Shown here: positions 22,120 through 64,000 of the stretch, piece by piece
Numbering within the stretch: the first letter of the stretch is position 1
Layout: every line of letters starts with the position of its first letter
From: Xiphophorus maculatus
Taxonomy: Eukaryota; Chordata; Actinopteri; Cyprinodontiformes; Poeciliidae
Reading direction: 5' to 3'
Length of the DNA stretch: 64,000 nt
Assembly: GCF_002775205.1 (NCBI RefSeq)
Contig: NC_036458.1
Location: 2,758,560-2,822,559 of the forward strand
Notes under the pieces: generated by a model
What the model was told of the DNA's origin: nothing
The model's database searches: none
The model's input: the letters and a program-made list of their open reading frames with translations, nothing else
Program-made: the position numbers and the translations under genes

Positions 22120-22244
22120 AGCAAAACCGAACTGGAGTCTCCGACACACGTGTGACGGCAGCACATATGCTTTAGGAGTTAGAAGTTTCTTGGCATCTGA
22201 ATTGCAATGCGATCCTTTTGCGAGTCTGCGATGGTGTGTGTGTG

Positions 22245-22285
<41 letters not shown>

Positions 22286-22600: not shown

Positions 22601-24591
22601 CTGCAGCCATTAGGCGTGAACTGAAGGGAGGGAAGGAGTTGTCTGTGGTTTTATCCTGACCTCATCAAGCTGAAGGTGAAACTGCTGCCGGGATCATTGA
22701 CTCTGATCAACAGACTCAGGTTTTCAGTGGGATTAAAGTTGCTTTTTGGGTGAAAATGCATTTAATTGTCAAAAAGTATATGAAAAAAACACTAAGTCCC
22801 AGAATTTATTGCAAAAGTGATAATATTGTTTTGAGACATTTTCAAGTCATATAATGCAGAAACACATTCTGAAAGCTCAATAAACTTTACATTCTAAAAT
22901 GTAAAATATTCGAAATAAATAAACAAAAAAATTTATTATAAATTCTCTGCAAGCAAAATTAACCTTCACAAAAGGAGCTAGTTGAAACCAAAACACCAGG
23001 CTGAAAACTGCAGTCATCCAGTTTTTGGTAGAAAGGCAAATAGAAATGAGAAAAACAATCATGCAAATACAAATTATTGAGTTCATCTTTATTTATTATG
23101 CAATTAATTGATTTATTGCAACATGCCTAGTAGTTCCTAGTGCAAGAAGGAACTGCTATATTTATTTACTTATATTTTGTATGTATTTATTTGAGTTGCT
23201 ATTTTTTGTGTGCTTTCTTGCACAATAACAATAAAGGAATCCTGATTGTAGTAAGATATTCGCAGTAGAAATGAGACAATAATACTTGGTGATATTTACC
23301 CGAAATGTTCACCGGTCCTCTGCTCTTCTACCTTTACTCTGATTTAGAGGATTTGTTAAATTGTTGGGAAAATCTGCTCTGCGCTAGCATTTAAAAAATA
23401 GTGTAAAAACCTTGACAGACTAAATCCTATGAAGCAAAAACAAGTCAATGTTTTGTTCCAGATGTGCTGATTGAGGAGCGTTTACCTTTGACTTCCTGTC
23501 CCAGACATCCAGACATCGGCCCGTTTCAGACTCGTCTCATCATGTAGATCTTTGAACGACTTGCTCTCCACTTCCTCACACCTCAGCTCCGTCGTCCACG
23601 CAGCCGTCCCGGTTTTACAAAGTGAGCTGGTGAGAGTTTGGTTCCAGGTTCTCCAGTTGCCGGCATCTGAATGAAGGCCTGAGCATCAACAGCATTGGAG
23701 CTGTGCGGGAAGCTGCTGCTGGTGTTACGCCCGCCTGCGGGGTCTAATGTCGTCTTCAAAAACCAGATGGAGACTTTGGGATCCATTTTTATATTAATGA
23801 CTATTACATGGATTTATGCACTCGACATCTTGTGAAACATTCTGATGCTCCAATGAATGAGTTCTTCATGCTGCTGTGGAGGCATAAACAAAGTCGTTAA
23901 ACTGAGCAGAGTTGATAAATTGTCTCTAAGCAGACATGTCATTAAGATATCAGCTGCAGGGAAATGTTAAAAGTTTTCCCAGTCGGCTCTCTGGTGAGGC
24001 GTTCACTGTCACAGACAGTGAAAAGGGTGAAAGACCAGAACCTTGTGGTACTCCAGAACCGATATGTCTGAAGTCCAATGTATGTTTAAAGTATTTTAGA
24101 GAGAAAGTCTTGGATCCAGCAAGATCAGCTGAACAATTATTAGCATTCTGTTTAAATAGAAAACAGATGGAAAGCAGACAAAATATAAGTCTAAATATGT
24201 TTTTAACTCATTTCCTTCATGAAACTTTTCTGCTATATTTTATCCGCTAAGATTGAAACTAAAGACTTTTCCAAAAAACTAATTTAAATCTCTGTGCAAT
24301 CTGAGTGTCTCTCCTCTTTTCTACCTGTGATCAGGAGGATAGTTACCTGCAGAATGTTTGTGTAGTGAGTTGTGATCTCATTCCAAACATCTTTGCAATA
24401 AAAAGCAAATAAACACAAAAACCAAAGTTAAAATGTTCCAGTTCCAGCATTGTGTGCAGAGATGAGATGATCCTGATTCCAAGAAAAAAATGAAAAACAC
24501 AACAGCTGTCAAAATGTTTAAACTAATTACACTGAGATTACGCTAACAAATAGTATTGTTAGGGTTGTTTGCTCATGTGCACAGCTGCGTT
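22601..24591. other. Upstream region of copy A, no gene seen
   Basis: Mixed AT-rich DNA with a GC-richer stretch at 23.5-23.8 kb that lacks convincing splice sites. No repeat with definable ends. Confidence 0.4.
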
Positions 24592-24966
24592 CACTGCAAA
24601 AACAGAAAATCTTACCGAGTATTTTTGGTCTAATTTCTAGTGCAAATGTCTTAGTACAATTGAAATACGACAAAACAAACTTACCAGTAACTTTTCAGGA
24701 AGATATAGTCAATAATTCCTTAATTTTGACTAAACATTACAAGGTCCACCAGCAGATTATAAGGAAAAATGTCTTGTTATAAGTGCCATTCCTCAATATT
24801 GAAGAAAAGAATCATCAATATTGAGGAATTATTAACTTAAAACAAGCTGCTATATGTTGCTGAAAAGTTACTTGTTAGTTAGTTTTGTCTTATTTCAAGT
24901 GTACTGAGAAATTTGCACTAGAAACTGGACCAAAAATACTTGGTAAGATTTTGTGTTTTTGCAGTG
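24592..24966. mobile_element. Palindromic MITE, copy P3
   Basis: Starts CACTGCAAAAACAGAAAATC and ends TTTTGTGTTTTTGCAGTG, with internal inverted repeats (CTAATTTCTAGTGCAAATGT and complement). Best-preserved member of the family in this window. Confidence 0.8.
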
Positions 24967-25589
24967 CTCAGGAAATATCAACAATTCGATTGTTTCTGTT
25001 TTCTCTACAGAGAAACTTCAATGAAAAAGATCTAAAAAGCCTCCAGTGTTTGTTTTTCCAGTACAGGGATCATTTGGTTTTCAGGTGTTTTGGTTTTTCT
25101 ACAGCGATAAGATCGATTCTTCATCAGCTTTCATGGCTGCTGCAGTCGGAACAGGACTGAATGTTTTCAGTCCTGCAGTGGACTGAACTGTTCCTACAGC
25201 ATGTTGTGTGGAAGTAAAAATCCAGTGAATTGTTAAAGATATTTGGCTTTTTTGCAGGTTTTAGAACTCATCTTGAATTAGACTGTTGTTTGTTTTGTCT
25301 CCACTTTCCCTCTGAAGCTGGGTCAGTTAGGAACACTTGAATTTTTACAAATCATTTTTTCTTTTGTCATCCAGATGTTTCAACTGAAGCTGCTGGATTG
25401 TTGAAAAAAGACAGACTGTTGCTTTGAAGCAGCTTTATTAGTGCAGTGAACAAAGATTTGTTGCATTTAAGTTGTTGCTGTTTTGGAGAAGCTTTTTGGT
25501 CATTCTTTTGTTTCTTTTTTTTTTATTCAAACAGAACCCACTGTTCATGATGCTAATTTTTATTTTCCCACTGTGATTCGGTGACGGCT

Positions 25590-25770
25590 GCATGCCGGGG
25601 AGGCGCTGCAGCCTTGCAGCATGAAGGTCAGGGGTTTAAATCCCAACCTTTCTGCATGGATATTGCATTCATGGGTTCTCTCTGGTTACTCAGTTTTTGT
25701 TGAAAAGTCCATAATAGTTGGGTTAGTTAGTGCTAAAGTTTGAGTGTGTGTATTACACTTTCTTTTTTAG
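25590..25770. repeat. SINE-like fragment
   Basis: GGGGAGGCGCTGCAG, GGTCAGGGGTTTAAATCCCAA and TTCTGCATGGA in order resemble the B-box-like and body portions of a common fish short interspersed repeat, ending near GTGTGAGTGTG-type sequence. A related body lies at 52330-52540. Confidence 0.4.
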
Positions 25771-26550
25771 ATAAAAGACCACATACTAGAAAACACAGCC
25801 AGACAACAACAATGAAGTCTTAGGGCCATTGGTAATAGAAAGAAATGAGTACATTTCTGCTAAAAAAAATCAGCAGAAAAAACAAGGAAATTTCTGAGGT
25901 CCAAAATATACAAATTTTATAATGAAAATCTATATTTTGATTAATTCCAGAAATTTCCTTGATAAATTAAGGAAATTTCTCAGCTAAAAATGTTAAATAT
26001 TTGCAAGAAAAAGACTCAAAATTTTTTAGCTTAACCTGAGAAATGTTCTGGAAAAAATTATAAATTTCTTTGCTTGAAAAGTCAAAAATTTCCCCTTTTG
26101 AAACTCAGAAAATGTTTAAAAAAATTTGACTTTGTGAGCTCAAAAAATTTCACATTTTTTTCTAGGAAATATTTAAAATCTCAAAATTTTTGCGTTTCTT
26201 TGCACACATTTTTGACATTTCAAGGTCATAAATTTCCTAATTTTTTCTAAAAGGTTTCTGAGCTTAATCTGAAAATTTCTGAGTTTTTCATCTACAACAG
26301 CCATCATAGACAACCAAACAACTCTTTGAGAATTTATAAAGAAAAAAAAGAAATATATGTGTGTGGTGTGTTATTATTATTATTATTATTAACTGTAATG
26401 CAATGAAAGAGACTAAAACTGAAAAAAAAAATGTAAACAATGACAATTTGAAAAAGTGTGCAGTTAAACAGCGCCCCCTGCCTGCAGGAGGACTTTGATG
26501 GTCCGTCATTGGCTTCCTGCTCAAACTTAGCAGCTGACTTTAGCGTGAAA
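25771..26550. other. A/T-rich low-complexity DNA
   Basis: Many tandem-like AAATTTCT / AAATTTTT segments at 25.85-26.29 kb and an ATT trinucleotide run near 26370. No gene. Confidence 0.6.
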
Positions 26551-26860
26551 ATCCAACTGCAAGGGCGGAAATACCGAACGTTTCTGACCTGATCCAGCAG
26601 CGTTCAACCGTCTACGATTACACACACTCGCATGCATGAGTGTGTGGCTCCATTAGAAACAGGAAGACTTTTCTCTATCGGTGTGAAACAACATCCCAGC
26701 GAGCTGGAACAGAAGCCTGATAGCGGCTCAGAGAGCATGATGGCGTTATCAGTATGTTCCCTCGAAGCGACGAGTGTCTCATGTCAGCAGGAATGAGCAG
26801 AAACCAGTTCAGATTGTTTCTTCTAAGTGGATAAAAGCTGCAGAGGTGACTTCTTGTTTC
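26551..26860 (+). promoter_or_regulatory. Co-duplicated upstream block
   Basis: Collinear with 52553-52830 upstream of copy B: CGTTTCTGACCTGATCCAGC, CCGTCTACGATTACACACA, CAACATCCCAGCGAGCTGGA and CAGATTGTTTCTTCTAAGTG each have a close match in the same order. No coding frame in common. Conservation across the two units marks the extent of the segmental duplication. Confidence 0.45.
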
Positions 26861-29009
26861 TGATAATTTTTTCAGAGATAATTGATGACAGTTGCATGAT
26901 TTTAAAACTGTTTCAAGTTGTTAGAACATCGCTGCTTCAGACTGCAGGAAAACATCTAAACTGAGTCCATGATGCTGCCAAGTCCTGACTCACAGGCAGA
27001 GTGCAGGTGTGTGTCTGTGTCTGGTGAATGTTTGGTTAAAACATGTTTGTTCTTCATTCAGTGAGTAGAAAATCCAGAAATTTTACTCAAGTGTAGAAAT
27101 ACTTCATAATAAAACGACTCAAGGAAAAGTAAAAAATAGCCGTTCAAGAAATTACACAAGTAAGAGTAAAAATGTATCTGGAGTAACTCCAGTACTGATC
27201 AAAACATTGAGTACTTAATATTTAAAATTTACGTTATTTGATGGACCAAAATATAAAGTTATGTGGAAATTCTAAAGATCCAAATGAAAGTAATTCATAT
27301 AAATAACACAATTACAAAATAACAAAATCAGGCAAAAGAAAACATTTTTCCAAATCAATTTCTTTCATAAAACTTTAGCAAAAATGGCAGATATTCAGTG
27401 AAGTTCCTCACAGTGGGGAGAGGATCCAGAAAGTTTCCTCAATTAAGAGTAGAGACAAAGATAAAGTACAAAATACAGAGCAGTAAAAATACTGCGTTAC
27501 TACCCAGCTATCACAGATTAACTGATTCTGCTTTAGCTGAACAGATGCTAACAGATATTCCTGAAAGTCTATAATGACTAAATGTTTTGGGTCAGATGAT
27601 ATTCAGGAAGTTGAAACAGTTGAAACCATAAATAGAAATTGTTTGCAGATGCGACGTCCCCATCTAGTGGCGAAAAAGAGACGAGCATGACGAGGATTGA
27701 AGCAGACTGGGAGTTTGTGTGTGGCGCCGGTTATCAGCGTGACAAGAGACTCGGTGACTTGTTGGTGATGGATGCACTCCAAGCACACACACACACACAC
27801 ACCCACCCACACACCCCCACACCCACCCACACACACACTGTAAGGTCTATTAAATCAGTGGAGAAGATCACAGCAGCTGGAGAAATAGGACTCGGGTTTC
27901 TTCATAAACGCGTTCACAGATGCACCTTAAATACGTCCATACCCGTCTCATATTCCTTGCAAGTGCTCCGGCTGTTTTGGGAAGTGATGTTAATGTTTGC
28001 GAGTGTGTGAATTTATCGACACCTTGCAGGGAACACCGGTGATGAAGATGATGAAATGATCTTCACAAAAAGAACTGCTTTGAATTGAGAGTTGCGATGA
28101 GCTTCATGTTGGATGTAGTTGCAGAAATGCAGCAAAGGGATAACGAGGGCATCTAATTAGTTGCCGTGGTAACCACATCTTTAGTAAGACACCACCAAAG
28201 GATCTCAAACCTCTCCAGGTTCAGCTGAGTTGTTTTGTCTTCTGGTATTTATCCACATTCGCCTGAAGATGTTGTTTGGTTTGCTGCGGAGGTCAGAGGT
28301 AAAGGTCTGACCTCCTCAGAGAAGCGACTAAAGGTCGTGACCCCGTGGTTTATTAGTGGTACAATGTGGCTCCTGCAGACGGCTTCCCGAGTCGAGTCAA
28401 ATCCAGGATTCCTTCCAGGCTTTTCTGCTCATCTGGATGAATTAGTTCAGCTCTGGAGATGAAGATGTGTTGCAACATTTTGAGTCAGAATTTTGTGCCC
28501 ATCAGAATTTTGGCCTTTAAAACTGTTTTTAGACACAGTTTTAAAAACCTGTCTCTAAAAACCATTTGCAAATACAGAAACCTGAGGCTGTGTTCATAAA
28601 TTAGTAGAAAAAATTAGAATTTAATCATACTGTGTGCTTCTGGGCTTTATTTCTGGTAAAATTGTCTAAAACTGTAACAAATAATTTTGAAGGGGCAGCA
28701 TTATGTATTTTCAAGGTACATGGAGCCATTTTATAGCACAATGAATCATCCTAGTGGGATTGCTGTCTTCATATCTCCACAGACAAACTGTACCAAGGGG
28801 GGAAGAGAGCAGAGTTTATTTCAAATGGACTAAAGAGCTGCTGATTGGGAATTTATCTCTCCGAAGTCCAATATTTATGTGATCATCTGAGACTTGAAAG
28901 AATGACTTGGACTGACGAGGGTTGAACGATCTTCATCAGAAAATATGTGAAGGAATATTTCACACATCTCTGTAACTCAGACATTAAGCTCAGTTTAGTT
29001 TGAAGCTTC
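26861..29009. other. Upstream region of copy A: repeats, CA microsatellite, no gene
   Basis: 27.0-27.5 kb is another copy of the about 360-bp repeat. 27785-27837 is a CA-rich microsatellite with CCCACCC interruptions. 28680-28745 (CAGCATTATGTATTTTCAAG) is a dispersed repeat also present near 49330. No exon is supported. Confidence 0.5.
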
Positions 29010-29175
29010 AGAGAAAGCATCAACAGATTAATCTGAGGACAGAGAGGAAGGAGGGAGGAACGGTGTAGAGGTCAGAGGAGGAGGAGGTTAGCGGCTGATC
29101 AGAGGGAGGTGAGGAGGAGCTGAAAGACAGCCATGTAGGAACACATGAAGGAATGGTGTGTGTGTGTGTGTGTGT
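29010..29175 (+). promoter_or_regulatory. Co-duplicated upstream block
   Basis: Collinear with 53330-53480: GCATCAACAGATTAATCTGA and GACAGCCATGTAGGAACACA are nearly unchanged in the other unit. Purine-rich, then a GT run. Function unknown. Confidence 0.4.
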
Positions 29176-29739
29176 TGGAATGAGCTGGGTCATCGTCCTC
29201 CTTGTAATTTTACACCAGAAAGTAAAACTGATGACTCCCAACAGCTGCTGGTGCCACGGAGACGAGAAGGCGGAGTAAAACCTGGAAATGAGGAGGAAAC
29301 CAGAGACAGGGGGCTGAGTGTGTGAGATTTATACCGACTGAATCTGCCACCACGATTACAGTTCTGCTCATCACAACACAAGTTTCTGATCACACACCCA
29401 TCATCACACACTCCACAGACCCAGATCTGCTCACCTTACCTCCCTCCACCTTCAGGTACCAATGACCTTCAGTTCACTACTTCTGGAAGTCACATCTGTA
29501 ATGGAGGTCTTGAACATGGCTCATTCAGATTCCATGTTCTCTAAAGAACAGAGGCCACCAACCGGTGATCATTGAACAGCTTTCATACAGTATCTGAGAA
29601 AAAACACAGCAAATCTGATGATTCAATTACAATATCCATCATCAACTTTTGGTTTATTTTTCAACTTTTCAAGGATCCATCTTCAGTGGAGAGGTCAGAT
29701 AAAGAAAGTTTTGGAGATTTTGTGATTGCTCGACTTCAT

Positions 29740-30125
29740 CCAGATTAGGGCAACTGGGAAACCCTCCTGAAGGCAGGCATGGGGAAGGAGTTTGATGATG
29801 AGATCTTGGCTCCAGGGGTTCAGAAGTGCCAATTTATAAAAAGCTTCAGGAAGCCATCTCCATGTGGGTTCAGTACCTAAGGGAGCAATGGGATTTCAGT
29901 GGCAGATCAGTTTGAGGACCTGGATGTGCCAATTCCATCATCATTTGGGTCTAGAGACATGGAATATCACCTCACTAGTGGGTTGGGGTCATTGCACTCC
30001 TCAAACTCATTTACCACATTAAGATAGAGGGGTTAATTCACTGCGTTATGGACTGGTAACCTGCTTAGGTTGAATCCGATCTTCACCATATTGACATTTG
30101 CGAATGCGTCAGAGACGGTCTCATT
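29740..30125. mobile_element. Possible RTE-type LINE remnant (decayed)
   Basis: AACTGGGAAACCCTCCTGAA and GTCTAGAGACATGGAATATC followed by ACCTCACTAGTGGG resemble the endonuclease start (G-TWN-TSL) of fish RTE-like elements. Many stops and deletions. Weak. Confidence 0.3.
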
Positions 30126-30127
30126 CT

Positions 30128-30660
30128 TAGGGTGCATTCTCACCGGCCCTATTTAATCTCTTTAATCAAACTCTAGCAGACTAAAGTTTGTCTATGTAGA
30201 AAGTCTGGTTCATTTGGGGAGGTGTGAATGCAAGCTCAAGTCTGGTGAGGGCAGAAAAGAGACAGAAAAGCAAACTCCGGTTCGTCCACAACGTAGGTTT
30301 TGTTTCGCTTGAAGTGAACTCTTGCACGGTTTGAATGCATGTGAATGACAAGTGGACCAGAAGCTGCTCCACAAACAGGAAGCGGACTACAGCACAGGGC
30401 ATTCCTGGTAAATATACCAAAACTAATGCACAAGTTTGTTTTGGCTGCTAGCTAGTGGTAGCAGGAGAAATTGCTCCGAGTCTCTTGCCAAAGATAGAAG
30501 AAAAATAAATCCTACATCGGATAAAATCTGGTGCTACTCCATTTTTGTTTACATTTCATGAAGAAGGAAGTTGCTCTTGTTGTGTTCTTCAGAGGTTTGC
30601 ATGTTGACAAACAGGTTGCTCAAAGGGTTTGGTTCTATGGAGGAGTTAAAAGGTGCCTAA
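30128..30660. repeat. Dispersed repeat family R1, copy 2
   Basis: GGTGCATTCTCACCGGCCC, GAAGTGAACTCTTGCACGGT and GCACAGGGCATTCCTGGTAA follow the order of the copy at 15314-15800. Both also share the downstream AAATCCTACA...AAAATCTG and TCCATTTTTGTTAACATTTC-like segments. Confidence 0.6.
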
Positions 30661-31579
30661 ACTCATGGAATATATAAATAAAGAAATGATACAAATTCCC
30701 TCTGCTCATAGCCAAAACGGGAAGAGATTTAATGCACATCTGAAGAATCAAAACATCACATTTACATCATTACAGGACTTCTGCTTCTAACATCAGTTTT
30801 TTATAGAGTCCCAGTTCTACTGGTGTGTATTGGGAAGCTTCGACCAATGGTGTTACTCCCCTTCATTTGTGTAGCAATTCTGGCTCCGTTTTACACTGGA
30901 TGTGTATTTGGATGTTCTGAGAATTAGGAGTCGACCTCCTGGAATCAAATCAGCTCCATCAGAAGAACTATTAGTCAAGTTGTTGTTCCTCATCTGTCCA
31001 AACAGGTTCTTTACCAAGTCTTGGGCTCTGGCCCGGTTCCTTTGCAGGAGAGCAGGGGAAAGGTCAGGTGCCAGAACTTTCTTGCACAACAGCTTAAAAC
31101 TAACATCTTTCCTCTCTTAAGTGATTGTTATTCCTCATCTCTTAAAAATCTGAATTCCTTCCTGACTTCTAGGTCAGATTGACCCAGTCCATTTGACACA
31201 GTACATTTCTTTTAGGTTAAAACATATCTTAGTGCGAACCAACCAAACAACATAATTTTTAACTATTAATATAATCATATTCCTCTACAGTTCATTTGAC
31301 ACAAGCAACAAAGTGTTTGTTTGATAGTGTGAATGTGAAACGCACCAGCTGAAAATGCAACTCATGTACCAATTTTGGTCCCCAACTGAACCAAGTCTTA
31401 ATTCCTGAGCAAAGGAGGTTGATGGTACGAAACTCAATGTTGGAAAAATCTAACCAGCCCTGGAGCAGAATAGGTTTTCATTATCAGCTACCTTCAGGAA
31501 AGACTCAGGTAATTTTTACTAGAACAAAGCCAAGTTTTCTTTGATAATAATTCTGCTTGGCAGTAAAGGTTTATGGTGG
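30661..31579. other. No gene seen
   Basis: AT-rich. Short segments near 31.2-31.4 kb (CATTTGACACA, GTGAATGTGAAACGCACCAGC) may be the distal end of the R1 repeat. No coding evidence. Confidence 0.4.
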
Positions 31580-31870
31580 TTTATGGTGAGTTGTTTCTGA
31601 TCGGAGGCTGTTAATGGGAGAAAACACAGCAGGAAGGCTCATTGTTGGTGAACATCATCTGTTGTAGATCAGAACAACTGAAACTCTGTCTTCTTGAACG
31701 TTTGACCCCGCTGTCATTTCCTGTTATTTCCAAGCAGAAAGGGATTAGCAGGGACTTCAAATTCCACATCCGGCTTCAAAATCAAAATTCCTATAACTAA
31801 TCCTCACTGTGACTGCTAGCAGAGACAAAGATAGCTCTTCTATTTCTAAATGAAATGAAATTGGTTAAGT
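31580..31870 (+). promoter_or_regulatory. Co-duplicated block about 2 kb upstream of copy A
   Basis: Matches 55245-55500 just upstream of copy B: GGGAGAAAACACAGCAGGAA, TGTTGTAGATCAGAACAACT and TTTCCTGTTATTT segments are nearly identical and collinear. Nearest long conserved noncoding block to both start codons, so a candidate proximal regulatory element. Confidence 0.45.
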
Positions 31871-32199
31871 GTTTTTGTTCTAGTATTTACTACTGTACTG
31901 TAGAGGTGTAAATGTTGGTGAGAAAGGAAAAGTCTGTGAGTGGTCAAATTAATCTGATTAAAGCAAAATGAGGAAACCTTTAGATTGAAAGGGCCAGAGA
32001 CAGAGACGGTCAGTCAGGTGGACACATCCAGAAACAGGCAGATCCAGACAGAACCATGGTTACCAGGAAGAGAGGAACATCGTTTCATAAACTCTGGAGG
32101 AGTAACAAGGAGAGAGGAGCGGTTCTAATGAGAACAAATCAGCCAAGAACTGCCCACCTATAAGTCTGATATTAACAAATATCTAAAGAAACACAATAC

Positions 32200-32491
32200 A
32201 AGAGCTGAAGGACAGTAAAAATTTGGAACAAACTTCCAGAAAACTGTAAAACAGCTGAAACACTGACTTCTTTTAAATCTCAACTAAAAACCCACCTGTT
32301 TAGAATTGTATTTGAAATGTAATCAATTACAAATTTATGGATGGAACTTGACTTAATGCTTTGTTTTGATTATTGATTCTATATTGCATTGTGTTTCTGT
32401 GTTTGTAATGATCTAAAGCACTTTGAAATGTCTTGCTGCTGAAATGTGCTGTACAAATAAAATTTGATTGATTGATTGATTGATTGATTGA
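32200..32491 (+). mobile_element. L2-type LINE, 3' end
   Basis: The reverse transcriptase C-terminus is visible (GTNFQKTVKQ-type frame, and in another register NCKTAETLTSFKSQLKTHLF), followed by a 3' tail ending TGTACAAATAAAATTTG and a GATT tandem repeat (about 32462-32491), the usual 3' end of fish L2 elements. 5'-truncated and with stops. Confidence 0.8.
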
Positions 32492-32676
32492 TAAAAAAAA
32501 CTTTATGTGGAATAGCAGTACTCCATTCTCCTGTTCTGCTTTATTCCCCTGTCAGGAAGACCTTCCTGATCGGTTCTGAGCACAGCAAGTTAAACATGTT
32601 CAGAACTTTACCTGTCACTTTTCTTATGCAGATTATTTTTCTGACATTTTTTAAGAAAGAATTTATCTGTCTAAAC

Positions 32677-32898
32677 CAGGGGTCTCAAACTCCAGTCCTC
32701 GAGGGCCGCAGACCTACAGTTTTTAGATGTGCCACAGGTACGAAACACTGGAATGAAATGGCTTAATTACCTCCTTGTGTAGATCAGTTCTCCCAGCCTT
32801 GCTAATGACCTAATTATTCTGTTCAGGTGTGGTGCAGCAGAGGCACATCTAAAAGTTGCAGGACTGCGGCCCTCCAGGACTGGAGTTTGAGACCTCTG
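32677..32898. mobile_element. hAT MITE, 222 bp, 8-bp target duplication
   Basis: Left end CAGGGGTCTCAAACTCCAGT, right end the imperfect reverse complement ending GAGACCTCTG. Flanked on both sides by GTCTAAAC (32669-32676 and 32899-32906). No coding capacity. Same superfamily as the element at 34555-34778, with a different terminal sequence. Confidence 0.9.
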
Positions 32899-32906
32899 GT
32901 CTAAAC

Positions 32907-33621
32907 CAAACCTCTCCAATATGAAGGCCAGTAAATGAGTCAATATGTGGAGAGTGCGTAATTAAACTTTTGATCCACAGCAGAAGCTTCCAGAACGTAA
33001 TGATCCATTGAAAGTGGAGACTAAATATTAAGTGTGGAGTGATTGTTCAGATGGAGATAAGATGAGAGAAACACCTGGAGTTTTCTATGTGATTGACTTA
33101 TTGCTAGCTTATCATCTTTCAAATGCAGCAACATCCTGAGAACTGATCAGAACCAGTATGACCATAACAGAACACAACCAACCCTGAACTTGACCGGCCT
33201 CAAAAGAACTGGTCTGACCAATACAGGACTGGACCGATCAAAGCAAAACTGAACCAATAACACCAACACACAACTGACCCCACTACTCACTGGACTGCAT
33301 ATCTCAACCAGAGCTTTACCTGTCACTGGAAAACTGGTCTGACTGAACAAGAACTGACCTTCCCACTCCAAAACTGGAACAACCAGTCAACAGATCTACA
33401 ATGAACTGGATGTGTTACAGAGATCAGATGAATCAGGTGATTGGTGTAATCTGGGACTCAGGTGACAAAGGATTGCAGTTGGCTTCTTGTTTTGATCAAA
33501 GCGTCTCTTCCTATTGGCTGCTGTAGATTTGCTTCCTTCCTGTTTATGTTTTTGTGTTTTTTCTTTTCTTCGTTGAATTGTGTGGAAAGATATTTTAGAC
33601 TTTTTGTTTTCCTTTTGTCAG
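32907..33621. other. Proximal upstream region of copy A
   Basis: 33140-33410 is a degenerate run of GAACTGGACCAA-like motifs. 33400-33621 has short matches to the segment before the copy B start. The sequence ends in a pyrimidine-rich acceptor (CCTTTTGTCAG) at 33621. No TATA or CpG island is evident, which agrees with transcription starting farther upstream. Confidence 0.4.
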
Positions 33622-33673
33622 GAGGCGGTTGCTAGGCAGCACAGAAGTTCGGGCGGTTCGCCAAAATGTCAAT

Positions 33674-47981
<14,308 letters not shown>

Positions 47982-48717
47982 CAGACTGACTAACCCAGAT
48001 GACTCTTCTCTGTTTAACAGAGCTTTCTTCAGTTCAGTTTGACACAGAAACCCACAAGGAAAGTGACTCTGGGTTCTTATTAATGCCACAAAAGAAACAG
48101 ATAATAATGTTTCCAAACAGCTCTTCACTTCACTGCTCATCACTTCAAAGCCAAGACATCTGTACTTATCCTTCCTTGTTTCTTTCTTCTGAATGGTGGA
48201 TATTGAGGTGATGAAAAGTTGAAAAAACCAATGGCTGCTAAACAGCCATTCAGACAGGTTTGGATTAGGTGAAGAAAGTGGTTATGTACCATTAACCAGC
48301 CAGTGGAGCATCGGATAGTTGGAGCTTTGGAGCATGGGCTGCATGAACGCCCACTTTAACCACGTCACTCATATTCATATAACCAGGCTGCTTTAATGCA
48401 GAACCTAAATGTCTTAAATTAACGAGTAAAGTCAGTTAATCTGCTGGACAGCAGGGGATCCAGGCAGTGGGTTAACCAGCAGGTGTTTGGGATTTTATTC
48501 CTGCACAGTAACAATGAAATGAACACAGAGAGATGTGACAGCTCACACCTGGTTTAAGGTGGCACCTCCTTCCACCAGCAGACACCCAGCCCTGCATGGA
48601 GGAAAACTCCTCCATCAGTCCCCAAGTCGTCCCCCAGCAGACTGCAAACTGGAGGTGACAATAACTGACTGTGATGTCATCACAGGTGTAAATGTGGGTA
48701 ATTCGTAGTTGAATAAA
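47982..48717 (+). other. scn4a: Probable 3' UTR of copy A with AATAAA signal
   Basis: No further coding sequence follows the TAG at 47979-47981. A canonical AATAAA lies at 48712-48717, giving a 3' UTR of about 0.75 kb if it is used. Later AATAAA-like words near 49200 are alternatives. Confidence 0.5.
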
Positions 48718-48770
48718 GGTTAAACCAAAGAATGTTACTGTGAATGTTATAATAATGTTACTGCGCTTTA

Positions 48771-48817
48771 TTCTTCCTTCCTTTCTTCCTTCCTTTCTTT
48801 CTCTTTCTTTCTTTCCT

Positions 48818-48857
<40 letters not shown>
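48771..48857. repeat. (TTTC)n tetranucleotide microsatellite
   Basis: TTCC/TTTC repeats, purest at 48815-48857, just after the probable poly(A) signal of copy A. Confidence 0.93.
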
Positions 48858-49684
48858 GCTGCAGTGCACGAGTCTGTACTCAGATTAAACACTTGTCCTT
48901 TTGTTCTGTGAAGAAATTCAACGTTTTTTTCCTATGAAATAATGTTGCATCATGTGATCGTTGGCTTAATCAGAATATTTGAAATATTTTACCTGCAATA
49001 ACATCTACGCGATTAAAGCTTCAAATTGTACTGAGCATGATTTCTGGAGTTTTTGTTTAAATATCTTTGTGTGCATCACATGTACCATGGCATGGATTTA
49101 CTCACCTGCTTTAAACAGATGCTGAACCAGCATTTATTTCATTTCTGACCTGAACTCAAGTTTAAAATAATAGTTTTATTGCTGACTAAAGGTACTGTTA
49201 AATAAAATTCTGTCCAACACAAATGTGCCGGGGCTGTTCTGGTAAAAAAGTGGAGGAGGTTATGTTCTTCTGGAGTTTCAACAGATGCAGACCACCTGAA
49301 CCTCCTTCACAGAAACACAATCTGCACTTCAAAGGGCAGTATTATGTATTTTCCAGGAACATAGCACCATTTTATAGCACAATCAAGCAACAATGATGCC
49401 TTCGGTTGAAATGTTACATATATCAAATCTCAGTTGACAGTAATTTGACTTTGAAAACTTGATGCCTTAAAATTAGCCTGTGTCTCCTTAAGAAGCTTCT
49501 CCTTCCAACACTTTAACACACAGAGCTTTACCTGAAGAAACACACACTAGCCAGTGGCACAATGGATGTTGTGTCCCGTTTGGAGCACAACATCCATATT
49601 TTCCAAATAATTCACAAACAAAATATTTTCTTGAAGTGAATTATTATGTGCCGGTATTTATGAATTTATGATAAGAACACAAAC
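48858..49684. other. Short spacer between copy A and the copy B leader
   Basis: No gene. 49325-49400 (GCAGTATTATGTATTTTCCAGG) is a dispersed repeat also present at 28680. Only about 1.1 kb separates the AATAAA of copy A from the candidate leader exon of copy B. Confidence 0.5.
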
Positions 49685-49815
49685 TATTCCCAGATCGCAT
49701 CAGACTGGAGTAAATAAAACATTTTAGTTGGGAACTGATGATTATGTTGCTTCCTGTGTGTGTGTTTCTGTGTGCGTGTCTGAGAAGACACACTACCTGA
49801 CCTCTCATGTTTCAG

Positions 49816-55965: not shown

Positions 55966-58225
55966 ATGGTCCCTCTGCTGCCCCCTGTTGGTACGGAGGT
56001 GTTTAGATGCTTCACACCAGCCTCACTGGAGAAAATTCAGCGAAAGCATGAAGCTGAAGCAAAGCAGCAGCAAATCAGAAAGGATAAGAACATCAAGGTA
56101 CGGATAATCAATCAGAGTACTATGTGACAATAACAAACCCTAATCCTGGTCTGACTGGTTTCTCTCTTACAGATAGCAAAGAAGTATCTTCCTAAACCAG
56201 CAGGTGATCTGGAGGATGGGAAGCCCCTCCCGTTGTTTTATGAAGACCAGGCCCAGGAGTTTCTCAACATCCCATTGGAGGACATGGACCCCTTCTACCA
56301 ATCACACAAGGTGTTACTCTCCATTGAAATTTTCAGAGAATTCGAAAATAGTTCTCTTAAAAAAAGTCAGAGCCGAATGTGGAGCAATTCCAAAATCTCA
56401 AAGTCCTAAATGTTCCCTTCCTAATAGAGCATTTCTACACTGAAGACCGATCATTATTGTGTGGCTTTCTAGTGTGTGCACACCCTCTGACAGAAAATAC
56501 AACCACAAAACTCAATCTTTCGACATTTCACCAAGTTTAAGTTATTTTCTAGCAACTGGAAAAAACTATACTTTTCTTTTTACCCAAAACATATTTATTT
56601 TCCTCCACAATAATCAATAAATATCAGACAGTATCAATAGTAACTTTACAGGTTTAGTTGGTCCAACAAATTGAACTTCCAATTATCTGTCAAATCTAAT
56701 CCTTTTCATTTGACTTCTGCACTTTTTTTAACTTTCTAATTGCAATGATGTTCAAAAGTTAAAGTTAATGACTAAGAAACTTTAAAAAATTATCCAGAAA
56801 GTCAATTTAAACCCAATTCATATGATTTTTAAAACTGCAATCAAATTACCTGTGATGGTTTTCAGTCAACCTGAATACGGTTGACTTTCAAAGATGAACA
56901 TAACTCTGGTTTTGGTTTATACAAATAAATGATTTGAGTTGAATTAGGATGTAATTCCGTTTTTCCTCTGCGTCTTTGCAGACCTTTATCGTTCTCAGTA
57001 AAGGAAAAACCATCTACAGGTTCAACGCCGAACCAACTTGTTACCTGCTGAGTCCCTTCAACTCTCTGAGGATCTTCTCCATCAGGATCCTCATCCATTC
57101 ATATCCTTTATGTCTTTATCATGTAACTATGATTCTTTTGAGAACACTTTTCTTAATAAGCCAATAGTTAAATTTTAAAGAGAGCAGCAGCACACTGAAA
57201 AACACAAAATCTTGCTGAGTAAAATTTGTCTAGTTTCTAGAGCAAATATCTTTATACACTTAAAATAAGACAAAACTACCTTACAGGTGACTGTTCAGCA
57301 AGATTTAGGAAATTTATTATACGAGAAATAATCTGCCAATGGAACAGGAAAATTTTCATCAATATTTAGAAATTATTGACTTTAAATAAGCTCCTAAATA
57401 TTGCTGAAACGTCACTTGTAAGCTAGTTTTATCTTATTTCAAGTATACTAAAATACTTGGTAATACGTGGTAAGATCTGTGTTTTTGCAGTGTAGGTTGT
57501 ACCTGTCAAAAGAAACATGGTTTTGATTTCAGATAAATGGACATGCTGAAGACTCAAGGAAATAGACAGAAGATGATATTAATGAGCTCTAATCATCAGT
57601 TGACCAACTGACATACATATTGCAAAAACTTTCCAAGGTCAATTCTGCAGAGTTGTGATAGGAATATCACATGAAACTGCAGTTTTGGAGCGCCGCATTT
57701 CAGGAACACTTAACCGACTTTACCTCCAGAATGTTGGTCATAATTGAAAGCATTATGGAGACCGTCTAAGTTTGTAGAGATGTGATATATTATTGTGCTC
57801 TATTATGAAAAACATGAGCAGAGCCACAACAAATAATAACAATCCCTAAACAATGTAGCCGAAACAGAACCCGGTAAGAGTAAGAACTAAACCGCAACAG
57901 ACATATAATAAACCACAAAAAATCCAGAATGGAGTCAGAATCAAAGTCACAGGAGAACTAGGGACAGAACTGGAATAGAGCCAGAACCAGAAACCTGAAA
58001 GAAATGACTAAATAAAAGCACCATGTGACTTAGAGTAACCAATCAGCTTTCAGAACCCACTGAAAGATTATTTAGCAGCTGAAGGGTTCTTGTTGAGCTG
58101 AAAACTGGTCCTTTTCCTTAAAACTAAAACTTTATTCAGTTTTTTCATCATGGCGACTATCCTGACTGACTGTGTGTTCATGACCTTGAGTAACCCTCCA
58201 GCATGGAGCAAGACAGTGGAGTAAG

Positions 58226-58307
<82 letters not shown>

Positions 58308-61300
58308 GAAACACATAGGCTTAGTTTATGGAAGCTCATTTCTGCCATAATACATATATAATATCAATTAATATTGGTTATCCGCCATAATATTAGCTCA
58401 TATTTTCAGTTCAGTGCATCCGTACTGAAAACCAAATGCCAACGGTGACCTATGACCTATGCAGAACATGTGAACAGATGCTCAGTATGTTGGGGTCTTG
58501 TCTCAGCTCATGTCTTCCTGTTGTTGGACAGATATGTTGTCTTTGTGATCTACACGTTTGAGGTAATCATCAAAGTTTTATCCAGAGGGTTCTGTGTGGG
58601 AGACTTCACCTACCTCAGAAACCCGTGGAACTGGCTGGAGTTCATGGTCATCAACATGATGTAAGAATTAAAACATTCCTGGACAGATTGCATCCCACTC
58701 AGATTTGTTGATATTAACTTAGTTACGATGCTGAAGAACGAGAAGATAATGAGGAATGTCTCTGTTTTACAGATACCTAGCAGAGTTTGTCCACTTTGGA
58801 AATGTATCAGCACTGAGGCCATTCAGAGTTCTTCGAATCCTGAAAATCATCACAGTATTCTCTGGTCAGTATGTCCGTTTCATTACAGAAACATGCCTGG
58901 TTGTAGGAGTCATGATCTTGTTGGAACTGACAGAATAAATGCTGCGTTCAGAATGAATACAATTTGAGTGTCGGGGGCGTTTGATTTACATGCGAAGTCT
59001 ATGTGGACGCAGCTCTACGGCTCGTCTCACTGAGCGTTTTAAGCATTATATGCATCTGGCGTTGCGCGCTTGAAGCACTTTGAGCGCAGCTACAAGATGG
59101 CCGACGCTGGAGCTGGAAAAACGGAACTTTTGCAGCTGGGTTTGGAGCATCAACCAATCAGAGAGACTCCACTATGTGGCGTAGCAGCCTGTAGTTGGTG
59201 TCCTGCCCGGAGATGTACACAGTGACACAGTTCACCAGATCATCATTAGCACTAAAAGCTACCCTCGTTAGCACACAGCGTGAAACTCGCCAAACTCACA
59301 ACACCCCTGAATTATCCGGTGAATTCAAATACGCAGCAGAGAAGCTCAACAACAATATTTTCTTGCTTTCTGTAAATAAAGCCAAGACATTTAGATCAGA
59401 ACAGCCGTTTCACAAAATGTTCACCAATTATCAATTTAGGGCAGCATGTTTTCCAGAAGCCATATAAACAACCTGTGGATAAATTATATAATGTGGCTAA
59501 GTATATCATCACGGCTTTTGTACAGTTCATTTTAGATTTTTTTTTTTTTATGTACAACTGCACCTAGAAAAAACAGATCATTCATAAACTAAACCCTACA
59601 TGATTAACTGACTATTTCTAACTAATTGTTCTGTAACTTTCTCTGCAGGTTTAAGGACAATCTTTGGGGCTGTCATCCAGTCAGTGAAGAAGCTGCGTGA
59701 TGCCATGCTTCTGACCTTCTTTTTTCTCAGTGTCTTTGCTCTGATTGGTTTACAGCTTTTTATGGGAGACCTCAGACAAAAATGCGTTTTTACCCTGTCA
59801 AGCGACAGCAACACATCAGGAGCTTTCAACATCAGTTCCTACGAAAACAACGGCAGTGACTTCGATTTTTACGAGTACATTAACAACCCAGGTAGCATGT
59901 CGAAGTATTTTACCTCAGAAATCACAAACATCCACCTGAAAAGATGCGAACTTCAACCTGTCCTTGTGTCTCACAGAAAATCACTACTACCCACCTGGTC
60001 AACTTGATGCCCTGCTGTGTGGAAACAGCTCTGATGCAGGGTAGCTTTAAGAAAACATTACTATTATTTTTAACATTATTGATTATGGTGATAATGATGA
60101 TGATGATGATGATGGTGTATCCAGGACCTGTCCAGATGGATACATGTGTCTGAAGGCAGGGAGAAACCCAAACTATGGATATACCAGCTACGACAGTTTC
60201 AGCTGGGCGTTTCTGTCTCTGTTCAGACTCATGACTCAGGACTTCTGGGAAAATCTCTTCCACCTGGTCAGTACCCAACATCTCCCTAATGCTGAGGCTG
60301 GTCCCAGCATCATCTCACCTCTGTTTATCTACATAGACGCTGCGAGCTGCAGGTAAAACCTACATCATCTTCTTCGTGGTCGTCATCTTCCTTGGTTCCT
60401 TCTACCTCATTAGTCTCATCCTGGCGGTGGTTGTCATGGCGTACGCCGAGCAAAACAGGGCTAACATCGTCAAGGCCAAACAGAGAGAAAAAGAGTATGC
60501 CCGCATCCTTAAGGAGTTAAAGAAGAGAGAAGAGGAGGTACAATGTGATGGAGAGAAAGCTTCCATCACTTTTCAGTACAAAGCTGAATGTTTGTTTTCT
60601 TTACATCAGACGGTCCAGAGGGCAACGCCCTTGGAGAAAAACGGCTCTGCATCACATGAGGAAGATGCTACCAGGGATGGTACACAGACACACTGATTAT
60701 TTTGGTGTTGTGCAGCAATAGGTGTCTAGTTTTGGATATAAATAACCATAATAATTGCTTAGGGCAATTATTTATAAATTAGTCATTTATATTTAAACTA
60801 CTGAGACAAGGCAAGACATTCAACATCAGAAAAAAATATTAGCCAAGTAGTTCAGTCTCGATTATTGTTGACCGAGTCATAGATTTCAAAGTAATAGGTG
60901 AAGGCACAATTATGGAATAAATACAAAAAACTTTTCTCAAATATACAATTATAACTACAGTAATAATTAAATAAATTAAAAATCTACACAACCTGCATTT
61001 ATAAGGTTCCTTCTGCAGACTTCTGAGTAAAATTAGCCTCAAGGTTTATGGCCGTCCAAAAAATACCTAATAAAAGACCCAAAGCTCCTGGGACATGTAG
61101 TGGGTGTTCTCTCTGCCAGAAGGGTTTAAAGTAGTGTGCCTTCTCTGCAATGCTGCCCTCCCAAGCAATAAGTGAAAGAGGAAGATGGTTTGCGATTTTT
61201 CCCTGATAAAAGTTTTCATGACATCACTGAGATTCCTCTTCCTGCTGAAGCTCCTGTCATTATTCCATCGCTGGAAGTCCAACACTGGACTTCTATTTCT

Positions 61301-63623
61301 TGCACTCGTATTAAGCCTTGTTCTGGTTCAGTAGGAGGTTTCTTCTTGTTAAAAGGAAAGAAGTCCACCCTACTTAAGTTTGGTCAAGATGGGGGATATC
61401 TGTGAAATCAATCATTTGTCAACTGGCTTCATCTCAATTACAAGTACTCTAAAACTTAGCCATTCAGTTAGATTTATCTTACATTTTCCGTAACAATCCC
61501 AAAGATTAAGTAAACCGAAGAGCAACAATAAGCAGATTAAGAAAAAAAAAGCTGTACCTGATGCTTAATTATTCTGAGCACCGGATGTAAATGTTAACTT
61601 ACTCAGCAGCTTTGTGTTTCAGACCTAGAGGACAACCAGAAGCCACGTTCTTCACGCTGGTACGTCTTTGCTGACACCTTCCTGAAGTGGGACTGTTGTG
61701 GCTGTTGGAGATGGTTGAAAAAGCTTCTGCATACTACTGTCATGGATCCATTTGTGGACGTCGCCATCACCATGTGCATTGTCCTCTACACTATCTTGAT
61801 GGCCACTGAGCACTATTATATGACTGAGAAGCTTCTACAGCTTATCGAAATTGGAAACCTGGTCAGTAACAGAGAGGAGGAACTGAGTTAGAGTACATGT
61901 AGTGAGGCCAAGTCCAAACGAAGACTGATGTTTTGTTTCGGTGTAATATTTAATGAAGTTATTTAGTTTTGGACAACAAGCTTGTAATGTTAGTGTTTAA
62001 GAGGTAAAGAAATGATCTAACGTGTGATATTTGACCCCCAGGTGATTACAGGGATCTTAACAGCTGAGATGGTTTTCAAAATTCTGGCGATGGATCCATA
62101 TCATTACTTTCAGGTCAGGATTATATTTCAAAACTAATGTCATAGTTGTGATGGTGTGCGGAAACTCCCGTGGTTACAGTCTCTTGTTGTCTTGGTTACA
62201 GGAAGGCTGGAATATCTTTGATAGCATCATCGTCACCATGAGTCTGGTGGAGCTAGGACTGGCTGTTGTTTATAGTGTTGTGTGGCGGCCCCTCAGATTG
62301 GTCCGTTTATCATTTTCTCAGCATGATTAAAAAGTGACCTTGTTTCTGTATTAATCTGTCCTAATGTCTCTGTTTGCCTCCTTATGCCATGTCCAGATAA
62401 GAGTGTTTAAGCTAGCCATGTCGTGGCCGGCTTTCAAGGTGTTGATAAAGATTATCCGCAACTCTTTGAGAGCCCTGGGGAACTTGATGCTGGTTCTCGC
62501 CATCATTGTCTTCATCTTCGCTGTATTTGGGATGCAGTTGTTTGGAAAGAGCTACAAAGACTGTGTCTGCCGCATTGCCCAGGACTGTGAGCTTCCTCGC
62601 TGGCACATGAATGACTTTTTTCATGCCTTCCTCGTCATCTTCAGGATTCTGTGTGGCGAGTGGATTGAGACAATGTGGGACTGTATGCAAGTTGCAGGGA
62701 AGCCTATGTGTCTGATTGTCTACATGATGGTACTGGTGATTGGAAAACTGGTGGTAAGTCTGTGCAGAAAAACTCTTTCTAATCTGACTTTGGTTGGTTT
62801 TTAAAAACCATATGACATTTCATGTTTCAAAACATGAAACTTCAAAAAGTTTCAAAACATGAATATGTTTTTGACATCGTTTCAGGTCCTGAATCTGTTC
62901 CTGGCCTTGCTGCTAAGCTCATTCAGTGGGGATAATCTTGCAGTTACAGAAGATGAAGGAGAAAATAATCTCCAGATTGTGATAAACCGGATCAGCAGGG
63001 GTACAGCAAGGACTAAGGCCTGGTTCTGGACTTTGGTGGGAAAGAAAACAAACATAAACTCAGATGTAAATGGTGGGAACAGATACTTGTTAAAGCATAA
63101 ACATTAGTTTAAGGTTTTTCTTTTGGTCTTCATAGTTATTTTTTTCTTTGTATTTTATGTTTTTAGATGTAACCTGTGAAGAAGGTGACAAGTCAAAGGA
63201 AGTTTTACCTCTGACAATTGTGAATTCAGAGCAGTCGGTGGTAAAAGTCCAAGACCCCAAAGTAACCAAAATCTCCTCTGAAGCCAAGTCTGACTCTGAG
63301 ATATCTAAAAATAAAAATGATGAAGATAATGAGGAGGATGACCAAGATGAACAGCTTGCACAAGTAAAATTTGAGGTTTTGGTTCTGTTACAGACTTGAT
63401 TGTGCTGTAGTGGTTTCCCTTTACATTCATAGATAATAAATGCCTCTGGAGTCTTTTAAATGCATTCAGGAAGAACCTCTTAATAAATACTGTATGTTGT
63501 TCATGCTAAGGTCTATCTTTGCTTAGGGTGATAAGTCTTTGGACTGCAGCAACATCGAGAGATTTCCTGTAATCTCAATAGTAAAAGAGGCAGAAGACAC
63601 TCCTGATGATTGTTTCACAGAAA
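55966..63623 (+). CDS. scn4a: Voltage-gated sodium channel alpha subunit, copy B, runs off the window
   Basis: Tandem paralogue of copy A, same strand. Coding exons: 55966-56097, 56173-56310, 56982-57100, 58131-58220, 58532-58660, 58773-58864, 59649-59891, 59977-60040, 60125-60266, 60337-60537, 60610-60679, 61623-61861, 62042-62113, 62202-62300, 62397-62753, 62886-63072, 63167-63363, 63527-63623. That gives 889 codons with no stop or frameshift. Every exon length equals that of copy A or differs by a multiple of three, so selection on the frame is visible. Domains I and II and the start of the II-III linker are present, and filter residues D375 and E698 are kept. Changes at normally invariant sites: FIYGDPP near residue 65 becomes LFYEDQA; domain I S3 NWLDF becomes NWLEF; S6 YLINLIL becomes YLISLIL (S409); domain II S6 GNLV becomes GKLV (K727); the last domain II S4 lysine becomes Met (KLAMSW). 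The acceptor of exon 11 has moved 3 nt downstream because its ancestral CAG is now CAT. Domains III and IV lie beyond the right edge, so the completeness of the gene is unknown. Confidence 0.9.
57101..58130 (+). other. U12-type AT-AC intron of copy B (intron 3)
   Basis: Begins ATATCCTTTA (perfect U12 donor), has TTCCTTAAAA about 8-15 nt from the end, and ends AAAAC before TTTATTCAG. Homologous to 34542-35172 but enlarged by a palindromic MITE. Confidence 0.92.
57193..57492. mobile_element. Palindromic MITE, copy P4, in the U12 intron of copy B
   Basis: Begins CACTGAAAAACACAAAATCT and ends TGTGTTTTTGCAGTG, with internal inverted halves. Same family as 19037-19429 and 24592-24966. Not present in the copy A intron. 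Confidence 0.75.
58227..58306. repeat. (CA)n microsatellite in intron 4 of copy B
   Basis: About 80 bp of CA with one CG interruption, starting right after the donor GTAAGC. Orthologous position to 35268-35319. Confidence 0.93.
58938..59480. mobile_element. Possible Harbinger-like or other DNA transposon remnant in intron 6 of copy B
   Basis: Locally GC- and CpG-rich sequence (TGCTGCGTTCAGAATGAA, GTTTGATTTACATGCGAAGT, CTATGTGGACGC, AAGATGGCCGACGCTGGAGC) interrupts an AT-rich intron and is absent from copy A. The opening words resemble the ends of fish Harbinger-type elements. The 90-codon frame at 59195-59467 has no family that I recognise. Confidence 0.35.
59993..60365 (+). other. Near-identical tract shared with copy A (373 bp)
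   Basis: Partner of 37745-38117. Includes two introns that are identical except for one base, although most other introns of the pair differ extensively. Explains why both genes share the identical domain I pore sequence. Confidence 0.85.
62754..62885 (+). other. Intron 15 of copy B, near-identical to copy A
   Basis: Matches 39938-40069 at a constant offset of 22,816 with about two differences by eye (CTCTTTC against TTCTTTC; AAACATG against AAAAATG). The first 80 bp of the next exon are also almost identical. A second homogenised tract. Confidence 0.75.
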
Positions 63624-64000
63624 GTAAGTGAACTAACAGAAAAATGTCTACTACCTTAGAAGGTGATCATTGGATTTAAAATTAACTGGGCCCAGTGGAT
63701 TATCTATAGAATAAGAACATTAAGTTATTTGCAGAAATAGTTCAAACAATGCCCCACTGTATTATAAGTCTAGTGGGCCATCAGGCTTTACCTGCTCCCC
63801 CAACAGGCGAAGCATTGTTTGTTTAGAGTTTTTATACACCAGTAACACTGACAGTAAAGATTATAGTAAAGATTATACTGTAGTTGAGGCAATGAACTGG
63901 CCTGAGGCAGGTTCAGGGACACCAACTGCGCCGTTCCTGAACCTTCCCGTTGGCTGTAACACTTTTTAACACAAAAGCAGTGGGCTGGTGGACTGCCATA
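63624..64000 (+). other. Start of intron 18 of copy B
   Basis: Follows donor GAAA|GTAAGT. The AT-rich intron continues past the window edge. The last 200 bp (GGCCATCAGGCTTTACCTGC, CCCCAACAGGCGAAGC) are unlike copy A and may be a repeat. Confidence 0.5.

What the first reader, a model, noticed from the sequence alone, without database searches (positions are those of the whole stretch)
59993..60365. Gene conversion over the domain I pore exon of the two channel copies
A 373-bp collinear tract (copy A 37745-38117) covers parts of two exons, one whole exon and two whole introns with one mismatch, while adjacent introns and exons differ widely. It carries the filter aspartate and the adjacent aromatic residue that sets tetrodotoxin and saxitoxin affinity, so conversion keeps or transfers the pore phenotype between copies.
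Basis: seen in the sequence. Interest (0 to 1): 0.75.

Follow-up and report, generated by a model that had tools for sequence, protein, structure and literature searches.

The report
Recurrent gene conversion between sodium-channel twins
In a platyfish, two neighbouring copies of a muscle sodium-channel gene have drifted far apart except where one copy recently overwrote the other across parts of the pore, and related livebearing fishes appear to have had the same patch overwritten separately.

Summary
A 37745-38117 and B 59993-60365 differ at 1 of 373 bases, including two whole introns (153 of 154 identical); of the 13 other introns compared, 12 are 41-86% identical and one (intron 15) lies in a second tract. 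No such run arose in 20,000 stratified permutations.

The copies are scn4ab (Nav1.4b) of Xiphophorus; B equals X. maculatus P0240. Among the best 120 hits, B orthologues came only from Poeciliidae. Between platyfish and guppy, 226 amino-acid sites group by copy and 3 by species; all 3 lie in exons 8-9 (one is 5 bp before the platyfish tract). Mollies share their own residue there. So this patch seems to evolve in concert in several lineages (protein evidence only).

Sites beside tract 2's core point to A as donor; tract 1's direction is open. No toxin phenotype moved: the aromatic residue is F in all seven poeciliid sequences checked.

Outside the window, annotated B proteins of three species lack the IFM inactivation motif. 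B may be a persistent sodium channel (inferred).

The parts
59993..60365 (+). Tract 1 in copy B: end of exon 8, intron 8, exon 9, intron 9, start of exon 10; domain I P-loop
   Evidence: 372/373 identical to A 37745-38117; 0 of 20,000 permutations
37745..38117 (+). Tract 1 in copy A
62774..62979 (+). Tract 2 core in copy B: most of intron 15 and the start of exon 16 (domain II S6); a wider high-identity stretch begins about 62635
   Evidence: 206 bp with 1 mismatch; with tract 1 masked, 0 of 20,000 permutations reach it
39958..40163 (+). Tract 2 core in copy A (wider stretch 39819-40163: 345 columns, 10 mismatches)
33674..47981 (+). Copy A: complete scn4ab coding region, 30 exons, 1766 aa, no internal stop; introns with AT-AC ends after exons 3 and 24
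   Evidence: gene model; named best hits are sodium channel protein type 4 subunit alpha B
55966..64000 (+). Copy B: exons 1-16 modelled to 63072 (791 aa, no stop); continues past the window end
   Evidence: identical to X. maculatus P0240 except that P0240 retains intron 10
60240..60245 (+). Filter aspartate codon and following phenylalanine codon of domain I in B (A 37992-37997)
   Evidence: aa 377-378 of the A model; coordinates from the exon table and the 22,248-bp offset
16181..49672 (+). Approximate first unit of the tandem duplication; the second unit starts near 49673
   Evidence: collinear BLAST matches such as 16181/49673, 16919/50460, 29009/53334, 31589/55245, 33611/55903; some upstream matches may be repeats and one (28687/49328) is not collinear, so the boundary is approximate

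Best explanation
The window holds a tandem pair of scn4ab genes; B-like copies were seen only in livebearers (Poeciliidae). After duplication copy B diverged fast over most of its length, but short stretches around the domain I and II pores are overwritten by nonallelic gene conversion. In this Xiphophorus genome the clearest event is the 373-bp domain I tract; another, possibly composite, covers domain II pore/S6. Shared residues suggest separate events in the guppy and molly lineages in the same exons 8-9. For the domain II stretch A is the likely donor; for tract 1 A is likelier but not shown. Mechanism (inferred): the copies lie about 22 kb apart in direct orientation and recombine where they are still similar enough, in pore exons kept similar by purifying selection; each event renews that similarity. 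Selection for a working pore may also favour such events.
For: Identity across introns and synonymous sites inside the tracts but not outside. Permutation tests for both tracts. Quartet XmacA/XmacB/PretA/PretB: 226 copy, 3 species, 1 cross; the species sites (aa 321, 334, 364) are the only informative sites in exons 8-9 (5e-7 if placed at random); no copy-type site falls in exons 8-9 in any of the five quartets. Mollies: aa 337 is S in P. mexicana A, P. latipinna A and P. formosa B but A in guppy and platyfish A and B. From exon 8 to the tract end (78 columns) paralogues differ by 3 (platyfish) and 2 (guppy) residues, platyfish-guppy B orthologues by 7; elsewhere (1,537 columns) by 363, 344 and 168. 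Trees of 18 sequences: outside the tracts B is monophyletic (1.000) and sister to poeciliid A (0.987); in the tract Poecilia A and B group together (0.951). Direction in domain II: aa 714 (codon at A 39872, in the wider stretch) is Q in four poeciliid A and in XmacB but E in 12 of 12 outgroups and both Poecilia B; aa 678 (39764, upstream of that stretch) is Q only in XmacA and XmacB. XmacB departs from outgroup-invariant residues at 76/406 sites of exons 1-16 outside the tracts, 1/51 in tract 1 (the edge codon) and 3/55 in tract 2; A at 1/407, 0/51, 1/55.
Against: No DNA from a second species, individual or assembly could be read, so recurrence rests on amino acids. aa 321 lies 5 bp before the platyfish tract, so it concerns Poecilia events only. 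Sites are few and some vary among outgroups: aa 364 is S in 3, G in 8, A in 1 of 12; aa 337 is S in Girardinichthys and aa 334 G in Nothobranchius. Species-type sites outside exons 8-9 (aa 604, 790, 1163) occur in four of the five quartets, and aa 252 is cross-type in three. Within Poecilia the B orthologues differ by only 3 in the tract, like platyfish A-B; platyfish A and B are not resolved as sisters in the tract tree (0.096). DIII and DIV pores are also fairly conserved in B, so conversion need not be what preserves the pore.
Confidence: 0.86

Rival explanations
1. Assembly or polishing artefact: reads from copy A were used to fill or correct this part of copy B.
For: Only one genome's DNA could be read; a near-identical insert with sharp edges is what such an error would look like; P0240 may come from the same assembly.
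Against: Guppy and molly proteins, from other genomes, show species-wise sharing in the same exons, with copy-type residues on both sides (from about aa 299 or lower upstream and aa 395-401 downstream); the copies are not fully identical; a second tract with more differences exists.
Confidence: 0.06
2. No conversion: extreme sequence constraint (protein, splicing or RNA structure) kept this segment identical since duplication.
For: The exons encode a highly conserved pore; 51 residues of the tract are invariant in the outgroups.
Against: Introns 8 and 9 are 153/154 identical and 0 of 49 synonymous sites changed; the shared residues differ between species.
Confidence: 0.02
3. Parallel substitution explains the shared residues in Poecilia, so only Xiphophorus had a conversion event.
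For: Sites 334, 337 and 364 vary among outgroups; only amino acids are available for Poecilia.
Against: In the platyfish-guppy quartet all three informative sites of exons 8-9 and none of the 227 others are species-type; among the 30 aligned sequences H at aa 321 occurs only in Poecilia A and B.
Confidence: 0.12
4. Copy B is a decaying pseudogene and the tract is an overwrite with no consequence.
For: A-B dN/dS is about 0.5 outside the tracts; B changes many conserved residues, including DII S6 N to K and, in annotations, loss of IFM.
Against: Open reading frame for 791 aa in the window and 1,655 aa in platyfish and P. formosa annotations, which can step over damage; DEKA is kept in all three B; B-specific residues are shared across two genera.
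Confidence: 0.2

Closest known systems
Nonallelic gene conversion among salamander Nav paralogues (PMC8476164; abstract, section 6 and section 9 read)
   Same: Conversion between tandem Nav paralogues over P-loop exons, including DI (Taricha Nav1.1-Nav1.3; A. mexicanum Nav1.2-Nav1.3, >626 bp with 2 differences), and between duplicated Nav1.4 exons.
   Different: In Taricha the tracts carry toxin-resistance substitutions; here no resistance residue is involved. Here the pair is two scn4ab genes in livebearers, and identity runs through introns.
Apteronotid scn4ab1/scn4ab2 duplication with persistent sodium current (PMC5870949; abstract, section 5, part 1 of 2 of section 6, and search passages read)
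   Same: Duplication of the same gene with one fast-evolving copy and changes in the D4 S4-S5 inactivation receptor; annotated B shares M1651R and has different changes at I1660 and G1661 (hNav1.5 numbering).
   Different: The electric-fish copy keeps F in its inactivation particle (LFL); annotated B has no recognisable IFM. 'Gene conversion' and 'tandem' do not occur in that paper's main text.
Teleost scn4ab (Nav1.4b)
   Same: Copy A is an ordinary member: 96% to the guppy protein over residues 1-801.
   Different: Copy B is a diverged paralogue; only four rows, all poeciliid, exceed 77% identity to it.

Membership tests
Nonallelic (ectopic) gene conversion tract | Sharp-edged near-identity spanning introns and silent sites | tested here: met
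   introns 8-9 153/154, dS 0 against 0.31
Nonallelic (ectopic) gene conversion tract | Run longer than chance by permutation | tested here: met
   0 of 20,000 for both tracts
Nonallelic (ectopic) gene conversion tract | Tract groups by species, flanks by copy | tested here: met
   proteins only, few informative sites, platyfish A and B not resolved as sisters in the tract tree
Nonallelic (ectopic) gene conversion tract | Donor and recipient identifiable | tested here: inconclusive
   domain II points to A as donor; tract 1 not resolved
Nonallelic (ectopic) gene conversion tract | Confirmed in an independent assembly or reads | not testable with these tools
   no second DNA source; the genome search unanswered in 9 tries
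scn4ab / Nav1.4b | Sequence relationship to annotated scn4ab | tested here: met
   tree
scn4ab / Nav1.4b | Four domains with DEKA filter | tested here: met
   A in the window; B for DI and DII in the window, DIII and DIV from annotated P0240, P0241, P0243
scn4ab / Nav1.4b | IFM inactivation motif | tested here: inconclusive
   A: present. B: absent in annotations P0240, P0241, P0243; that exon lies outside the window
Persistent-current scn4ab1 type | D4 S4-S5 receptor substitutions | tested here: met
   T1645K, M1651R, M1652K, L1657V, I1660L, G1661C in three annotated B proteins; numbering inferred from the paper's labels
Persistent-current scn4ab1 type | Measured persistent sodium current | not testable with these tools
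   needs electrophysiology

The most novel reading that the evidence does not exclude
Livebearing fishes carry a second muscle-type sodium channel that has lost fast inactivation (no IFM, altered receptor) and gives a persistent current, while repeated conversion from its neighbour keeps its domain I and II pore modules working: a channel whose pore evolves in concert with its twin and whose gates evolve freely.
Probability: 0.3. Interest if true: 0.85.

Novelty: new member of a known kind. Interest (0 to 1): 0.6.

Why it matters
It gives a clean case where gene conversion acts as a patch on particular modules of a duplicated ion channel, apparently recurring in several species of a fish family that is much used in genetics. 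It warns that pore exons of tandem Nav copies cannot be used alone to infer orthology or toxin-site evolution. If B lacks fast inactivation, it is a second, independent persistent-type scn4ab duplicate, outside electric fishes, and testable in oocytes.

Tried and rejected
The genome search in the window's own assembly was tried nine times with the same request and never answered, so copy number and other assemblies stay unchecked. The genome and viral contig collections were not searched, since by their descriptions they hold bacteria, archaea and viruses. A transfer of toxin resistance was considered and rejected: F follows the filter D in the seven poeciliid sequences checked. The idea that only converted pores stay conserved in B was tested and not supported. 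Pure selective constraint was rejected on introns and silent sites. Structure prediction was not used.

Literature: six searches. Searches (8 of 8 papers listed; 4 of 4) were seen whole; others (20 of 637; 20 of 30; 15 of 3,045; 15 of 16) were capped. None of the titles and abstract beginnings listed concerned a poeciliid scn4ab tandem pair or conversion in it; apart from two papers (PMC8476164, PMC5870949) none was opened. The library is open-licence only.

Rows and choices: of 247 proteins held, 28 plus the two window proteins were aligned. Counts against outgroups used 12 of the 14 non-poeciliid rows; F. heteroclitus and Melanotaenia were left out. Trees used 18 of the 30 rows. Quartets used one representative per copy and species; P. 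formosa B was paired with P. mexicana or P. latipinna A because no P. formosa A was listed. After rechecking I lowered the main confidence from 0.90 to 0.86 and raised the parallel-substitution rival from 0.10 to 0.12, because aa 321 lies just outside the platyfish tract and platyfish A and B are not resolved as sisters in the tract tree.

Full report
What is there. The window carries two direct tandem copies of a voltage-gated sodium channel gene. Copy A (CDS 33674-47981, 30 exons, 1766 aa) is intact. Copy B starts at 55966 and runs off the window; exons 1-16 give 791 aa without a stop. Both are scn4ab (Nav1.4b): A's best hit is the guppy protein at 96% over residues 1-801, and the 791 aa of B are identical to X. 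maculatus P0240 except that P0240 retains intron 10. Copy A matches X. maculatus P0124 in identical blocks totalling 1605 of 1766 residues; the rest look like differences of gene model. The window is therefore Xiphophorus, most likely X. maculatus (inference).

The observation. The 373-bp tract is real, at the stated coordinates, with one mismatch. It includes introns 8 and 9 complete (153 of 154 identical), exon 9 complete and parts of exons 8 and 10. Intron 7 upstream is 72/84 and intron 10 downstream 56/72 identical; introns 1-6 and 11-14 are 41-77%. Coding dS is 0.31 outside the tracts and 0 in tract 1. A GENECONV-like permutation, stratified by codon position and intron, never reached the observed run in 20,000 trials; its null keeps the tract's own lack of mismatches in the pool and is in that respect conservative; seven poorly alignable introns were left out.

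A second tract. With tract 1 masked, a run of 206 bp with one mismatch remains (A 39958-40163, B 62774-62979), and 345 columns with 10 mismatches from A 39819; 0 of 20,000 permutations reach either. The core covers most of intron 15 and the first 94 nt of exon 16; the wider stretch takes in the domain II pore end of exon 15. Direction: aa 714 (A 39872, in the wider stretch but not the core) is Q in four poeciliid A sequences and in platyfish B, but E in both Poecilia B and 12 of 12 outgroups, so A was the likely donor; aa 678 (A 39764, just upstream of that stretch) is Q in platyfish A and B alone. Beyond the window, aa 1136 of annotated B shows the same A-to-B pattern, a hint of a third tract in domain III (not followed up).

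Does the tract group by species? In one search only four rows exceed 77% identity to B: X. maculatus (P0240, P0242), P. formosa (P0241) and P. reticulata (P0243). For platyfish A and B with guppy A and B, 226 sites group by copy, 3 by species and 1 crosswise. The species sites, aa 321, 334 and 364, are the only informative sites of exons 8-9; aa 321 lies 5 bp before the platyfish tract. With P. formosa B and P. latipinna A in place of guppy the counts are 216, 4, 1 (aa 321, 337, 364 and, outside, 1163), and with P. mexicana A 213, 4, 1 (aa 321, 337 and, outside, 790 and 1163). Guppy against molly gives 229, 3, 0 (aa 334, 337 and, outside, 604) and 224, 4, 0 (the same and 790). No copy-type site falls in exons 8-9 in any of the five quartets. 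Distances agree in part: from exon 8 to the tract end (78 columns) platyfish A-B differ by 3, guppy A-B by 2 and platyfish-guppy B by 7, but the two Poecilia B differ by only 3 and platyfish-guppy A by 3. Elsewhere (1,537 columns) the first three numbers are 363, 344 and 168. Outside the tracts B is monophyletic (1.000) and sister to poeciliid A (0.987), so the duplication followed the split from the Cyprinodon and Fundulus lineage; in the tract Poecilia A and B group together (0.951) while platyfish A and B are not resolved as sisters. Hence platyfish (by DNA) and guppy and molly lineages (by protein) probably homogenised this patch separately or continually.

Age. Tract 1 has one difference at about 203 intron and synonymous sites (upper 95% bound about 2.7%) against dS 0.31 for the rest, so it is recent relative to the duplication.

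What it does. Shown: DNA of the DI and DII pore region is near-identical between otherwise diverged copies. Inferred: the copies recombine where selection has kept them similar, and each event renews that similarity. Not shown: that this preserves function. Platyfish B departs from outgroup-invariant residues at 76/406 sites outside the tracts but 1/51 in tract 1, the one being the edge codon (Fisher 0.001). Yet its DIII and DIV pores, with no demonstrated conversion, changed at only 4/38 and 3/35 sites against 1/41 and 2/39 in DI and DII. DEKA is present in the three B proteins compared. The residue after the DI aspartate is F in the seven poeciliid A and B sequences checked; the newt paper calls Y at this place sensitive and A or C resistant; that F is likewise sensitive is recalled. 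So conversion here did not move a toxin phenotype.

Copy B as a channel. Within the window B changes conserved gating residues: DI S6 N to S (platyfish only), DII S6 N to K (all three B) and positions in the DI and DII S4 segments. Beyond the window, the annotated B proteins of three species replace the linker that holds IFM by a shorter proline-rich stretch and carry changes at T1645, M1651, M1652, L1657, I1660 and G1661 of the D4 S4-S5 receptor (hNav1.5 numbering inferred from the paper). In the electric-fish study R1644W, L1647W, M1651R, I1660F and G1661S together gave a large persistent current in hNav1.5 (PMC5870949, passages). M1651R is the same change. This supports, but does not show, a persistent current; the exon concerned is known only as annotation.

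Known and new. Conversion between Nav paralogues over P-loop exons is published for salamanders (PMC8476164), so this is a new member of a known kind. In six searches of the library, four of them capped listings, I saw no paper on the poeciliid scn4ab pair or on its combination of a concerted pore with a divergent gate.

Noticed in passing
outside window; P0240, P0241, P0243 (B orthologues), DIII-DIV linker and DIV S4-S5: Annotated B proteins of platyfish, Amazon molly and guppy lack the IFM inactivation motif and share receptor changes, including M1651R as in electric-fish scn4ab1.
   Followed up: partly
A 43494-43499 (exon 22); B part beyond the window: aa 1136 is G in the poeciliid A sequences and in platyfish B but ancestral N in Poecilia B: possible third conversion tract in domain III.
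   Followed up: no
45336-45419, 45565-47139, 47218-47579: Copy A's last coding region (DIV to C terminus) is split by three introns in my model, whereas the newt paper describes one terminal exon of about 390 aa in Nav1.4: apparent intron gain in fish scn4ab.
   Followed up: no
16181-16744 and 49673-50226: Upstream block 87.5% identical between the two duplication units although the next match downstream is about 71%: conserved regulatory element or another conversion tract.
   Followed up: no
5736-6208 and 7998-8470: Inverted repeat of 473 bp with 6 mismatches, 1.8 kb apart; unexplained, perhaps a mobile-element remnant.
   Followed up: no
34542-35172 and 44075-44158: Introns with AT-AC ends after exons 3 and 24, at places where Nav genes are known to have them (recalled).
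   Followed up: partly
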